The notes below the pieces were generated by a model. That model had not been told where the DNA came from. It made no database searches and worked only from the letters and a program-made list of their open reading frames with translations. DNA of 33,564 nucleotides from Candidatus Poseidonia sp. (GTDB taxonomy: Archaea; Thermoplasmatota; Poseidoniia; Poseidoniales; Poseidoniaceae), in assembly GCA_030827745.1 (NCBI GenBank), contig JAURDW010000017.1:1-33564 (forward strand). The letters run 5' to 3'. Made by a program: the position numbers and the translations under genes. How positions within the stretch are numbered: the first letter of the stretch is position 1; each line of letters starts with the position of its first letter. Below are positions 21,806 to 26,052 of this stretch, piece by piece.

Positions 21806-22681
21806 TCAAGCCTCTTCTTCACACGACGCGAAGTCCACGCCCAAATCGGCCCACTCCTCCAGTTCAAAGGTCTCTGGCCGTCGGTCCAACCGGGGGTCGT
21901 TCTGCATCGCTGCGTACGCTCGGTCCCAACGGGATGCATGCCAGCCCGGCACACGAGCGATTCGGCGGGGGGCTCTTCGCAAGGTTCGCCTCATCTTTTT
22001 TCTGCGTTGAGCGAAAGTCGTTTGAATCATCATCACCAGAAGCCTTCGGTCGCACGGCCAATCTTCGCCGTGAGGGGTCATGCGCAGCAGGCGGGAGTGG
22101 ACCTTGGGCATGGGCGAGAAGGCGTGTGGTGGAACGCGCTCGCCCATTTCAACATCAAAATCCAAGGCGACGACCATGCCCAAGGACCCGACATCACTTT
22201 CGTACTCCATCACGACGCGTTCGGCAAATTCCTCTTGGACGAGCATCACCACTTCGCTCAACGGCGCTGTTTTTGGATGACGGTGGTGCCGTGTGAGGGC
22301 GTCGATGAGCGGCGAGGAGATTTGGTAGGGGATGTTGGCGACGATTTTCGTGATGTCCCGAGGCCAAGCTACCGTCAGGGCGTCGCCTTCAATCAGCGTC
22401 AATCGACCGTCAGCGAGGTCTTCGGCAAAGACCTGACGAAGGTGAGCGCAAGCACCTGCGTCCAATTCAACGGCGGTCACCGCACATCCCGTGGCGAGCA
22501 AGGCTTCGGTCAAAACACCGGGGCCGGGGCCGACTTCAAGCACATGGTCCTCCACGTCCACTTCGGCCCAAGCCACGGTGCGCTCAAGCACATCGTCGTG
22601 GACAAGAAAATGTTGGCCGAGGCTCTTCTTCGTCGGTTGCAGGGCTCGCAGGGCGTCCACCAGTTGGCGAGCGCCCCTCAT
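21806..22681 (-). CDS. ksgA: rRNA adenine dimethyltransferase KsgA/RsmA
   Basis: SAM-dependent enzyme that dimethylates two adjacent adenosines near the 3' end of 16S rRNA during small-subunit maturation. The product is 291 residues. SLGQHFLVHDD is the conserved N-terminal segment, LEVGPGPGVLT (48-58) is SAM motif I, VELD is motif II, and NIPYQISSPL (116-125) is the catalytic NxPY motif. FSPMPKVHSRLLRM and TTFAQRRKKMRRTL are typical of the C-terminal domain. Its ATG overlaps the DUF655 stop (ATGA). The order rpl21e-rpoF-DUF655-ksgA is a widespread archaeal cluster. Confidence 0.96.
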   Translation of the reverse strand: MRGARQLVDALRALQPTKKSLGQHFLVHDDVLERTVAWAEVDVEDHVLEVGPGPGVLTEALLATGCAVTAVELDAGACAHLRQVFAEDLADGRLTLIEGDALTVAWPRDITKIVANIPYQISSPLIDALTRHHRHPKTAPLSEVVMLVQEEFAERVVMEYESDVGSLGMVVALDFDVEMGERVPPHAFSPMPKVHSRLLRMTPHGEDWPCDRRLLVMMIQTTFAQRRKKMRRTLRRAPRRIARVPGWHASRWDRAYAAMQNDPRLDRRPETFELEEWADLGVDFASCEEEA

Positions 22682-23508
22682 GCGGTCACCGGCAAGAGGA
22701 GGTCGATGAGGCGAGGCTGGAGGGCGGGGTCGTTGATCTCCTCAACAAAGCGCTGTGCCAACAAATCGGGGCCTCTGATTTTGGCCAGGCTGTTGAGTTC
22801 GTCCATGGACGCGAACACGCCCACACCTTCTCGGGCTTTGACCATGTTGCGAGCCTTCACCGGTCCGACATCAGGCAACAATTCGTAAGAGTGCTGTTTG
22901 AGGGAAATCGGTCCCGCTTTGTTGTAAAACTCGTCCACGAAGTACTGTGCGTGCTCGGTCACAAACAACTCGACCACCACCGGGAGGTCCTGGCGGGCCA
23001 TGTTTGACATTTTGTCAGCGTGGGCCATGCCGAGAATGCCCGTCACCTCCACGCGTCGGCTGGCGTCGGTGCCGATGTAGAGGCGGTGGTTGTGAGGCAG
23101 CATCTCGCTTGCCTTCACTTTCAGTCGGCAGCACTTCATGCCGTTTTCAGAGAGCGCAGTCACGACCCCTGTGGTGACGTCGTGCTCGACCACTCGAGCC
23201 CAATTTTCGCCCTTGAGTTGTTCGGGACGCTCCCTTCGCGGTTGGTCTCGGCGTCCGCCGCCTTGTTGGCGGCCACGTCCTCCTTGCTGCCGACCTCGGC
23301 CACCTTGTTGCCTTCCCCGTCCGCTTGAGTCGTTGCCCGGGCGGTTGCGGTTTTGCCGCGGTTGATTGGGGTCGGGCTTGGGCTTGGGCTTGGGGACCTC
23401 AGCACGGCCCATAGGCGGGGGGTTCATTCTGAACTTGGACGGGTCCGTTGTCTCCTTCTTGCGAGGCCCGCTTGGGGCTTTGATGGAGCGTCTTCGCCGT
23501 TCAGTCAT
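22678..23508 (-). CDS. DUF655 putative nucleic-acid-binding protein with RGRQQGG repeats
   Basis: Protein of 276 residues. The C-terminal 175 residues match the archaeal DUF655 family: an OB-like beta region (GVVTALSENGMKCCRLKVKA) and a helix-hairpin-helix region (LLPDVGPVKARNMVKAREGV). The family is regularly encoded beside ksgA, and a role in RNA binding or ribosome maturation is assumed from that. The first 100 residues are a low-complexity, strongly basic extension with Pro-Lys repeats (KPKPKPDPN) and three exact RGRQQGG repeats. This RGG-like tail is probably disordered and may bind RNA. Confidence 0.88.
   Translation of the reverse strand: MTERRRRSIKAPSGPRKKETTDPSKFRMNPPPMGRAEVPKPKPKPDPNQPRQNRNRPGNDSSGRGRQQGGRGRQQGGRGRQQGGGRRDQPRRERPEQLKGENWARVVEHDVTTGVVTALSENGMKCCRLKVKASEMLPHNHRLYIGTDASRRVEVTGILGMAHADKMSNMARQDLPVVVELFVTEHAQYFVDEFYNKAGPISLKQHSYELLPDVGPVKARNMVKAREGVGVFASMDELNSLAKIRGPDLLAQRFVEEINDPALQPRLIDLLLPVTA
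23257..23319 (-). repeat. Three tandem RGRQQGG heptads in the DUF655 protein
   Basis: Residues 64-84 of the DUF655 protein are three exact copies of RGRQQGG, followed by GRR. At DNA level the three 21-base units use different synonymous codons. The repeat is therefore conserved as protein and is not a fresh DNA duplication. Confidence 0.85.
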
Positions 23509-23904: not shown

Positions 23905-24195
23905 TCATTCCAGTGGGCGGAGGTGCTCAGGGCGAGCGATCACGGTTTTCTGCATGTTGCCGTCTTTGACAGCGACAATCCATGCGACGCCCTGACGCTT
24001 CGTGATGAAGCCGGTGCGGCCGTGGAAACGGCGGTGAGGCATGCCGCCTTGCTGGCCACCGTCAAGGACGATGGCGACGCGGTCCCCTTCTTCGTACTCG
24101 TGCATGACGCGACGAATGTTCAAGCGACTTCGCTCGTTCTTCCGTCGTCGCAAAATGCTTCGGGTGCCGACTCGCTGTCCCTTTGAGCGCTTCAT
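23905..24195 (-). CDS. rpl21e: 50S ribosomal protein L21e
   Basis: Archaeal/eukaryotic large-subunit protein with an SH3-like fold, 96 residues from ATG 24195. KRSKGQRVGTRSILRR is the conserved N terminus, EEGDRVAIVLDGGQQGGMPH and FHGRTGFITKRQG form the beta core, and IARPEHLRPLE is the typical C terminus. GGAGGC eight bases upstream decides for this ATG over a TTG at 24219. It is the first gene of the rpl21e-rpoF-DUF655-ksgA operon. Confidence 0.97.
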   Translation of the reverse strand: MKRSKGQRVGTRSILRRRKNERSRLNIRRVMHEYEEGDRVAIVLDGGQQGGMPHRRFHGRTGFITKRQGVAWIVAVKDGNMQKTVIARPEHLRPLE

Positions 24196-24264
24196 TTTGT
24201 TCGCCTCCGTTGTCTCCAATCAGCGCAAGCGCCACTTCGGAGCAAATTGCCGACTTACCCTCCC

Positions 24265-24307: not shown

Positions 24308-26038
24308 TCAGTCGGCATGGATGTCGCCCACGTCCAACCAGACCACGTTGCATTTGGCCTTGATGAGCGCGGCGACGCACGGTTGCGTGCGCCCGCTGTC
24401 GCCGTGGACGGTCTCTTTGACATAGGTGCCCGATTCGCAACGCAAGGTGAATTCGATTTCCCGTTCCCCGTTTTCGTTAACTTCGATGAAAGGGGTGTGC
24501 GCCTCAAACACCGTCCGTTTCCGAATCAAATCGGAGCGGCGATGGGCCACGCGCTTGGGGGTGCGTTGGGCGAGTTTGAGGCCGTTTAGGCCCTCGATGA
24601 CCTTCAGAATGGTTTCGTCATCAGGCAAATCAAAGGAGGCCGGAGCGGGAGGCAGGGCCGCCAGAATTCGTGCGACCAACTCGTCCTTCTTGCCGGTCTT
24701 TGCCAAGCCGTGGTTCTCGGCCAAGGCCACCAACTCCGGCTTCTTCATGGCCTTGAGCTCGGCCTCGCTCGGTCCGGCCTCAGGCACTTCAATGGGGGCT
24801 TCAAGCGGCTTGGTTCGGTCTGCACCTTTGTCGCCACGACGTTGCCGTCGGCGTTTTTTGCTGCGTTCCTGAACGTCTTCCTTCGTCATGTCCACCGGAG
24901 CGGTCAACACGGCGTATTCGGCCTCGTTCATCGGTTCGATGGTGAAGCGAATCGTGTAGGATTTTTCCGCAGGCGTGTCCTTGATGCGCACCACTTCGCT
25001 GCGGCTGGATGCTCGTATCCCCAAAACCTCCACCGAGCCTTGAGCGGCTTCGTTGATGATGTCGGTCAGTTTTTCCGCATTGAAGGCTCGCCTCTTTGGC
25101 TCTTTTATTTCCAATACAAACGGACGCCCTCGTCCCAAGCAACGCACGTCGATATCCTCTCGCCCCATCCCGTGGAAGGCGTGTTCCGCCCCCTCAAACG
25201 CTTCGAGCATCGGGTTGCCCACCAGGTCCTGGACGCTGCGCTTGTACTGCAATCCGGTCTCGTCGCACCGTTCGCAACCGCGACCTTTGCAGGCTCGGCA
25301 AGGCCAGCGGGTTTGGGGAATGCCACGCTCCAATTTTCGGTAGCGTCCGTAGACGTAAACTGCTCGGATGTCGAGCTCAACGGTGAGCGTGAGCACGTCG
25401 ATCAGCGCCAAGATGTCGGGCTTGTCGTTGACCAGTGCCACCCCTTCGAGCCGGTCTTTCAGTCGAGCGCCAATCTCTTCGACGAGCGATGATTTCAACG
25501 GGTTGGAACCGCCGGCGCCGAGGCGTTTTCGTAAATCCTCTTCGCTTTCCATCTGATCTTTTGGAAAACGGGCTCCGAGTTGCAAGCGACTGACATCGTA
25601 GGGTTCGATGGCTTCGTGGATCAGGTCAGCGAGCAGGTCCACTTCCTCAAACAGGTTCTCGCAAAACGGACACAACGGCGATTCATCTCGGGCCTTTGCC
25701 ATGTGGGGGTCTTGGTCTTCCACGGAACTTCGAACACCAAGGCCTGCCTCTTCGAGAGTCTGGCCGTACATGCGTTTGCCACCAACGCGGCCCAAACACG
25801 CATCGCAGGTGCCTTGTCGAACGAGGTACTTGTGGCCCGCCGCCGAGGGCGCTCGGGGAATTTCCTCAACATGGGTGCCCAATTGCATGGCGACTTCCGC
25901 AGCGTGTTCTTCGTCCTCCTCAACGGGTTCAACATCGTCCCAAAGGGAATAGTCCGTCTCACCAAAACTGGCGGTGGCGTACTTCATCCAGTCCTCTTCA
26001 TCGTCGTCGTCGGGCCGCTTCGCCTCGTTTTCGGTCAT
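24308..26038 (-). CDS. pus10: tRNA pseudouridine synthase Pus10 with inserted SAP-like motif
   Basis: Enzyme that makes pseudouridine at positions 54/55 in the T arm of archaeal tRNA. Product of 576 residues, longer than usual. After an acidic N terminus come zinc knuckles C78xxC81 and C123xxC126, and a THUMP-like region. Next is the Pus10 signature QTRWPCRACKGRGCERCDET followed by GLQYKRSVQ, and the catalytic segment FHGMGREDIDVRCLGRGRPF with the active-site Asp in GREDID. Then come QRTPKRVAHRRSDLIRKR and the C-terminal CESGTYVKETVHGDSGRTQP. Between YTIRFTIEP and ETILKVIEG there is an extra block of about 100 residues: a basic KKRRRQRR linker and a SAP-like helix pair at 425-461 (LKAMKKPELVALAENHGLAK). 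ATG 26038 has GGTGAGG just upstream. Confidence 0.93.
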   Translation of the reverse strand: MTENEAKRPDDDDEEDWMKYATASFGETDYSLWDDVEPVEEDEEHAAEVAMQLGTHVEEIPRAPSAAGHKYLVRQGTCDACLGRVGGKRMYGQTLEEAGLGVRSSVEDQDPHMAKARDESPLCPFCENLFEEVDLLADLIHEAIEPYDVSRLQLGARFPKDQMESEEDLRKRLGAGGSNPLKSSLVEEIGARLKDRLEGVALVNDKPDILALIDVLTLTVELDIRAVYVYGRYRKLERGIPQTRWPCRACKGRGCERCDETGLQYKRSVQDLVGNPMLEAFEGAEHAFHGMGREDIDVRCLGRGRPFVLEIKEPKRRAFNAEKLTDIINEAAQGSVEVLGIRASSRSEVVRIKDTPAEKSYTIRFTIEPMNEAEYAVLTAPVDMTKEDVQERSKKRRRQRRGDKGADRTKPLEAPIEVPEAGPSEAELKAMKKPELVALAENHGLAKTGKKDELVARILAALPPAPASFDLPDDETILKVIEGLNGLKLAQRTPKRVAHRRSDLIRKRTVFEAHTPFIEVNENGEREIEFTLRCESGTYVKETVHGDSGRTQPCVAALIKAKCNVVWLDVGDIHAD

Positions 26039-26052
26039 CGTCCTCACCGCTC

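What the first reader, a model, noticed from the sequence alone, without database searches (positions are those of the whole stretch)
24655..24930. SAP-like DNA/RNA-binding motif inserted in the catalytic region of Pus10
Pus10 normally runs directly from the strand after the catalytic Asp to the QRTPKRV segment. Here about 100 residues intervene: a basic KKRRRQRR stretch, an acidic/Pro linker, and a helix pair fitting the SAP pattern (LKAMKKPELVALAENHGL...KTGKKDELVARIL). Catalytic and C-terminal motifs are intact on both sides, so the enzyme should be active with an extra nucleic-acid-binding module. I know of no described Pus10 with this architecture.
Basis: partly seen in the sequence, partly recalled or inferred. 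Interest (0 to 1): 0.65.

Follow-up and report, generated by a model that had tools for sequence, protein, structure and literature searches.

The report
SAP domain inserted in Pus10
In one family of ocean archaea (Poseidoniaceae), the tRNA-modifying enzyme Pus10 carries an extra SAP module, a small fold that usually binds nucleic acids, spliced into the middle of its catalytic domain; this is a real, inherited, apparently undescribed variant of a well-known enzyme.

Summary
The window gene at 24308-26038 (minus strand; Poseidonia, Marine Group II archaea) is a bona fide Pus10 (TIGR01213, 388 bits) with about 100 extra residues between the strand after the catalytic half and the QRTPKRV segment. 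The insert contains a true SAP domain: PF02037, residues 431-465, E 8.8e-8, above Pfam's cut-off. AlphaFold predicts a confident SAP fold (0.5-0.7 A rmsd to solved SAP domains of DEK and Tho1).

It is not unique to this gene. It occurs in 10 of 11 sampled genera of Poseidoniaceae and is absent from the eleventh (basal in the Pus10 tree), the sister family, and all other aligned phylum Pus10s. The tree needs one gain. The insert is under purifying selection. The basic KKRRRQRR stretch is dispensable: one genus has the SAP with almost no linker.

The wider context is more surprising: SAP domains are expanded across the class Poseidoniia (4-9 per genome) and fused to ribosomal proteins eL32, eS1 and uL24, an FKBP isomerase and an NYN RNase. 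I read the Pus10 SAP as a flexibly tethered nucleic-acid-binding arm, more likely for RNA than DNA. Binding partner and effect on activity are inferred, not shown.

The parts
24308..26038 (-). pus10 gene (archaeal tRNA pseudouridine 54/55 synthase) with internal SAP domain; most likely start ATG at 26038 (tool ORF starts at GTG 26047)
   Evidence: TIGR01213 388.5 bits vs cut-off 200; Pus10_C and Pus10_THUMP_arc; start by alignment with relatives
24635..24934 (-). whole insert relative to Pus10 of the sister family (residues about 372-471)
   Evidence: alignments of 56 and 40 Pus10 proteins
24836..24859 (-). basic stretch KKRRRQRR (residues 397-404), predicted disordered; conserved within the genus, absent in genus g125
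24653..24757 (-). SAP domain (residues 431-465)
   Evidence: PF02037 E 8.8e-8; AF2 helices 428-433, 436-445, 454-464 with pLDDT about 90; SAP-only model pLDDT 90.8
25154..25156 (-). catalytic aspartate D298 in GREDIDVR (assigned from family knowledge)
   Evidence: nearly invariant column D298
24932..24967 (-). beta strand (residues 361-372) after which the insert begins; contains invariant Y364
   Evidence: DSSP of model
24542..24568 (-). segment QRTPKRVAH (residues 494-502) where the conserved catalytic core resumes
   Evidence: invariant columns Q494 T496 P497 R499 V500
23905..24219 (-). ribosomal protein eL21 gene, neighbour of pus10 in both families; supports orthology
   Evidence: PF01157; tblastn found it next to Pus10 in 100 loci, including L038 and L042

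Best explanation
This is an ordinary, catalytically intact archaeal Pus10 into whose catalytic domain a SAP domain was inserted once, in an ancestor of most Poseidoniaceae. Shown: the insert, its SAP identity (profile plus predicted structure), a single gain on the tree, and purifying selection on it. Inferred: the SAP sits on a flexible linker that leaves the catalytic domain between a core strand and the helix before the QRTPKRV strand, and works as a second, low-specificity nucleic-acid-binding arm. In genera that have the basic stretch, the linker adds to it. Its most likely partner is RNA: tRNA or pre-tRNA bound by Pus10, or ribosomal or messenger RNA holding the enzyme near the translation machinery. 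It would raise local substrate concentration or residence time rather than change the chemistry.
For: SAP profile hit above cut-off. AF2 gives a confident SAP fold within the full protein and alone. Foldseek matches solved SAP domains: DEK on nucleosome (rmsd 0.5), Tho1 (0.7), 3'hExo bound to a histone mRNA stem-loop (0.7-0.8) and FAN1-DNA (1.0), though with E of 0.5 or more for this 41-residue query. Profile search of solved chains: SARNP/Hcc-1 SAP, E 6e-7. Residues K435, K436, L439, G452, K454 and L457 are invariant and R460 nearly so in 22 diverse Pus10 SAPs. dN/dS about 0.07 for the SAP, like the THUMP half (0.09) and near the catalytic parts (0.05). One gain on the core tree, SH-aLRT 96. 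In the same class SAP is fused to RNA-associated proteins: eL32, eS1, uL24, NYN RNase.
Against: No binding data exist. Most characterised SAP domains bind DNA, and the Tho1 SAP, a close structural match, bound dsDNA but not dsRNA (PMC4909252). The net charge of the SAP itself is near zero. SAPs in this class also sit on tails of predicted membrane proteins, which an RNA-only role does not explain. The position of the SAP relative to the active site was not measured: the tool gave no inter-domain error and no coordinates.
Confidence: 0.55

Rival explanations
1. The SAP binds chromosomal DNA and keeps Pus10 at the nucleoid, so that tRNA is modified co-transcriptionally.
For: Classical SAP domains bind DNA; closest fold matches include DEK-nucleosome and FAN1-DNA; the Tho1 SAP binds DNA and not dsRNA. 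SAPs on ribosomal proteins and membrane proteins could equally tether to DNA in a cell without a nucleus.
Against: Fusion with ribosomal proteins, an RNase and a tRNA enzyme is more simply read as an RNA context. No DNA-modifying or replication protein was among the SAP proteins I identified.
Confidence: 0.2
2. The SAP is a protein-protein docking module that recruits Pus10 to a partner, for example the ribosome or another tRNA-processing enzyme.
For: SAP is attached to very different proteins in the class, as a general docking tag would be.
Against: The invariant residues are Lys, Gly and Leu of the nucleic-acid-binding SAP pattern; no partner is evident.
Confidence: 0.14
3. A neutral insertion in a surface loop that tolerates extra sequence, with no function beyond folding.
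For: The same site carries an unrelated acidic insert of about 30-35 residues in genus g12 of the sister family (L040, L044) and a short one in g5, so the loop tolerates insertions. The linker before the SAP varies from almost nothing to more than 60 residues.
Against: The SAP has been kept in 10 of 11 genera with invariant binding-type residues and dN/dS about 0.07.
Confidence: 0.08
4. Assembly or gene-calling artefact.
For: The genome is a fragmented, 82% complete assembly.
Against: The same in-frame insert is found in many independently assembled genomes, including a single-contig genome, G073.
Confidence: 0.01

Closest known systems
Archaeal Pus10 (TIGR01213; Pyrococcus furiosus and Methanocaldococcus jannaschii Pus10), tRNA pseudouridine 54/55 synthase
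   Same: THUMP-containing N-terminal half, conserved Cys clusters, PUS catalytic domain and catalytic motifs
   Different: about 100-residue insert with a SAP domain between the two halves of the catalytic domain; acidic N-terminal tail typical of Poseidoniales
Human PUS10 (PDB 2v9k)
   Same: same fold; best structural match of the model, E 1e-26
   Different: no SAP; the corresponding loop is short
SAP domains of SARNP/Hcc-1 (2do1), Tho1 (4uzw), DEK, and 3'hExo/ERI1
   Same: helix-extended loop-helix fold and sequence pattern; 3'hExo is a precedent for a SAP in an RNA enzyme bound to an RNA stem-loop
   Different: those are domains of eukaryotic, mostly nuclear proteins; here the SAP lies inside an archaeal tRNA-modifying enzyme
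SAP-fused ribosomal proteins eL32, eS1 and uL24 of Poseidoniia (found here)
   Same: same class of organisms, same domain, RNA-associated hosts
   Different: the SAP is terminal there and internal in Pus10; TVxELK type there, KKxEL type in Pus10

Membership tests
Pus10 | Full-length match to the curated archaeal Pus10 model above cut-off | tested here: met
   TIGR01213 388.5 bits vs 200, in two stretches split by the insert
Pus10 | Pus10 THUMP-type and C-terminal catalytic domains | tested here: met
   PF22023 and PF21238
Pus10 | Conserved catalytic Asp and surrounding motifs | tested here: met
   D298 nearly invariant; Y364, K544 invariant over 45 sequences
Pus10 | Human PUS10-like fold | tested here: met
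   AF2 mean pLDDT 84; Foldseek 2v9k E 1.3e-26
Pus10 | Makes pseudouridine 54 and/or 55 in tRNA | not testable with these tools
   needs biochemistry
SAP domain (PF02037) | Profile match above gathering score | tested here: met
   32.0 bits vs 23.9; 25 of 45 Pus10 proteins match
SAP domain (PF02037) | Helix-extended loop-helix fold | tested here: met
   models; rmsd 0.5-0.7 to solved SAPs, with Foldseek E of 0.5 or more for the small domain
SAP domain (PF02037) | Binds DNA or RNA | not testable with these tools
   conserved Lys and Arg only
Rho_N / SAP_new25 (related small domains) | Match above their own gathering score | tested here: not met
   Rho_N 20.2 bits vs 24.9; SAP_new25 21.2 vs 26.3

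The most novel reading that the evidence does not exclude
Poseidoniia use SAP domains as a general cytoplasmic nucleic-acid tether. The ancestor put them on ribosomal proteins (eS1, eL32 or uL24), a peptidyl-prolyl isomerase and membrane-protein tails, and Poseidoniaceae later added Pus10. Translation, tRNA maturation and membrane insertion would then be held together, or to the nucleoid, by many weak SAP contacts.
Probability: 0.2. Interest if true: 0.8.

Novelty: new variant of a known kind. Interest (0 to 1): 0.5.

Why it matters
Pus10 is a conserved tRNA enzyme of archaea and eukaryotes whose accessory domains differ between lineages. A single, phylogenetically placed gain of a nucleic-acid-binding-type module inside the catalytic domain is a natural experiment on how the enzyme selects or holds tRNA: closely related Poseidoniaceae with the SAP, with a minimal SAP (g125), and without it (g5) can be compared directly. 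The class-wide attachment of SAP domains to ribosomal proteins suggests an unexplored feature of translation in some of the most abundant archaea of the surface ocean.

Tried and rejected
Artefact: rejected by recurrence in many genomes. Alternative small domains (Rho_N, SAP_new25, FANC_SAP): all below their cut-offs. Independent gains: the tree needs only one change. Phylum outliers with long Pus10 ORFs or split hits (G129, G112, G127, G238): no insert at this site; G129 and G112 seem to have extra residues elsewhere that I did not study. Direct test of the SAP position relative to the active site: model coordinates are not exposed. Origin of the Pus10 SAP from a particular paralogue: 35 residues are too few; nearest to the window SAP outside Pus10 are other KKxEL-type SAPs in L145, L150 and L152, about 41-53% identical. 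Two key Pus10 papers (PMC3753934, PMC5863725) are not held. Pus10 from Pyrococcus and Methanocaldococcus was not aligned directly; the TIGR01213 model and the phylum sample stood in for them.

Full report
WHAT IS THERE. The window comes from a Poseidonia-like genome (Marine Group II, Ca. Poseidoniales; close Pus10 hits in named records are titled Poseidonia sp. or Poseidoniaceae). The minus-strand ORF 24308-26047 encodes a protein that matches the curated archaeal Pus10 model at 388.5 bits against a cut-off of 200 and Pfam Pus10_C and Pus10_THUMP_arc. The Pus10 match is cut into two stretches by an insert. Relatives suggest that the true start is the ATG at 26038. The downstream gene order eL21 - RpoF - DUF655 - KsgA was identified by Pfam in the window, RpoF just below its cut-off. 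eL21 adjoins Pus10 in both families, including the SAP-less L038 and L042, so the compared genes are orthologues.

THE INSERT. Between F368, the end of the SYTIRF strand, and I484 there are 115 residues, where sister-family Pus10s such as L042 have 14. It runs through a helical segment, the basic stretch KKRRRQRR (397-404), a Pro/acidic linker, and a SAP domain at 431-465 (PF02037, 32 bits, gathering score 23.9, E 8.8e-8). AlphaFold2 on 45 aligned relatives gives mean pLDDT 84; the linker from about 391 to 420 is of low confidence and the SAP helices 428-433, 436-445 and 454-464 are confident. The SAP modelled alone (pLDDT 90.8) superposes on solved SAP domains of DEK (0.5 A), Tho1 (0.7 A), SARNP (0.6 A) and the RNA-bound 3'hExo (0.7-0.8 A). 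Foldseek E-values for this 41-residue query are 0.5 or more, so the sequence profile carries the statistical weight. A profile of 22 Pus10 SAPs finds the SARNP SAP among solved structures at E 6e-7. The full model's best match is human PUS10, E 1e-26. Motifs on both sides are intact over 45 sequences.

DISTRIBUTION. In the own genus, every genome in which the Pus10 region is assembled has the insert. Within the family (sequences checked) genera g1, g2, g3, g4, g6, g16, g17, g18, g19 and g125 have it. Genus g5 lacks it: three genomes checked by sequence, two more by split hits. The sister family f2 lacks it in all 24 genomes of the relatives sample; most have a linker of about 14 residues, and g12 has an unrelated acidic insert at the same place. 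In the remaining phylum sample, the Pus10 hits listed are mostly contiguous over about 400 model positions, and the outliers that I aligned have nothing at this site. Human PUS10 has only a short loop here. On a tree of the core without the insert, the SAP-bearing proteins form one clade (SH-aLRT 96) with g5 as sister; one gain suffices. In g125 (L108-L111) the SAP is present with almost no linker and no basic stretch, so the SAP is the constant part.

SELECTION. Among close own-genus sequences dN/dS is about 0.07 for the SAP and 0.085 for the basic linker, compared with 0.09 for the THUMP half and 0.05 for the catalytic halves (synonymous sites are near saturation, so these are rough). K435, K436, L439, G452, K454 and L457 are invariant and R460 nearly so in 22 diverse SAPs.

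CONTEXT. SAP is expanded in the class: all 27 Poseidoniia genomes sampled have 4-9 hits, against 12 of 89 other phylum genomes with 1-2. Hosts identified by Pfam: ribosomal eL32 (N-terminal SAP), eS1 (C-terminal SAP), uL24 (C-terminal SAP, third family), FKBP isomerase, NYN RNase, M28 peptidase, DUF7121. With eS1 and eL32 as queries, the fusions run through both Poseidoniales families; eS1-SAP also reaches the third family, whereas that family's eL32 has none. Elsewhere in the phylum no SAP-fused eS1 or eL32 was seen in these searches. I found no report of this in the held literature.

INTERPRETATION. Shown: the insert, its SAP identity, intact Pus10 motifs, single origin, conservation. Inferred: the enzyme is active, and the SAP is a tethered nucleic-acid-binding arm. 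RNA is favoured over DNA because the substrate is tRNA and several other SAP hosts in the class are RNA-associated; the fold match to 3'hExo-histone stem-loop complexes shows that a SAP can occur in an RNA enzyme. Against this, the Tho1 SAP binds DNA and not dsRNA (PMC4909252). Earlier work as reviewed in PMC9957541 reports residues for tRNA binding and activity, and the importance of the thumb loop and N-terminal cysteines; the QRTPKRV region after the insert is, by my own recollection of the TruB alignment, the thumb region, so the insert enters just before it.

VERDICT. The class-wide SAP-ribosomal protein fusions deserve at least as much attention.

Noticed in passing
L001 (eL32), L002 (eS1), L131 (uL24), L003 (FKBP), L142 (NYN RNase) and homologues: SAP domains fused to ribosomal proteins and other RNA or protein-folding factors across the class Poseidoniia; eS1-SAP in all three families sampled, eL32-SAP in two, uL24-SAP in the third.
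   Followed up: partly
window 25844-26038, Pus10 N-terminus: Strongly acidic N-terminal tail (net charge -18 to -24 in the genus) with a conserved motif like EEDWMxYAxAGFGxTDYSLWDD in Poseidoniaceae and a related motif in the sister family; absent from the other phylum Pus10s aligned. Possible partner-binding peptide.
   Followed up: partly
L040 and L044 (genus g12, sister family): Unrelated acidic insert of about 30-35 residues at the same site of Pus10 as the SAP insert: an insertion-tolerant loop.
   Followed up: partly
window about 23190-23340, minus strand, N-terminal part of the DUF655 protein (22678-23508): Long basic, low-complexity tail with GGRGRQQ repeats, RGG-like, ahead of the DUF655 domain.
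   Followed up: no
L004, L006, L152: SAP domains on the N-terminal, presumably cytoplasmic, tails of predicted membrane proteins, including an M28 peptidase; topology judged by eye.
   Followed up: no
L115 (G129) and L116 (G112): Pus10 of other Thermoplasmatota with roughly 45-100 extra residues at a different place from the SAP site.
   Followed up: no
L119 (G105:C18:11066-12205): Pus10 reading frame with one in-frame TAA; possibly a sequencing error or a decayed copy.
   Followed up: no
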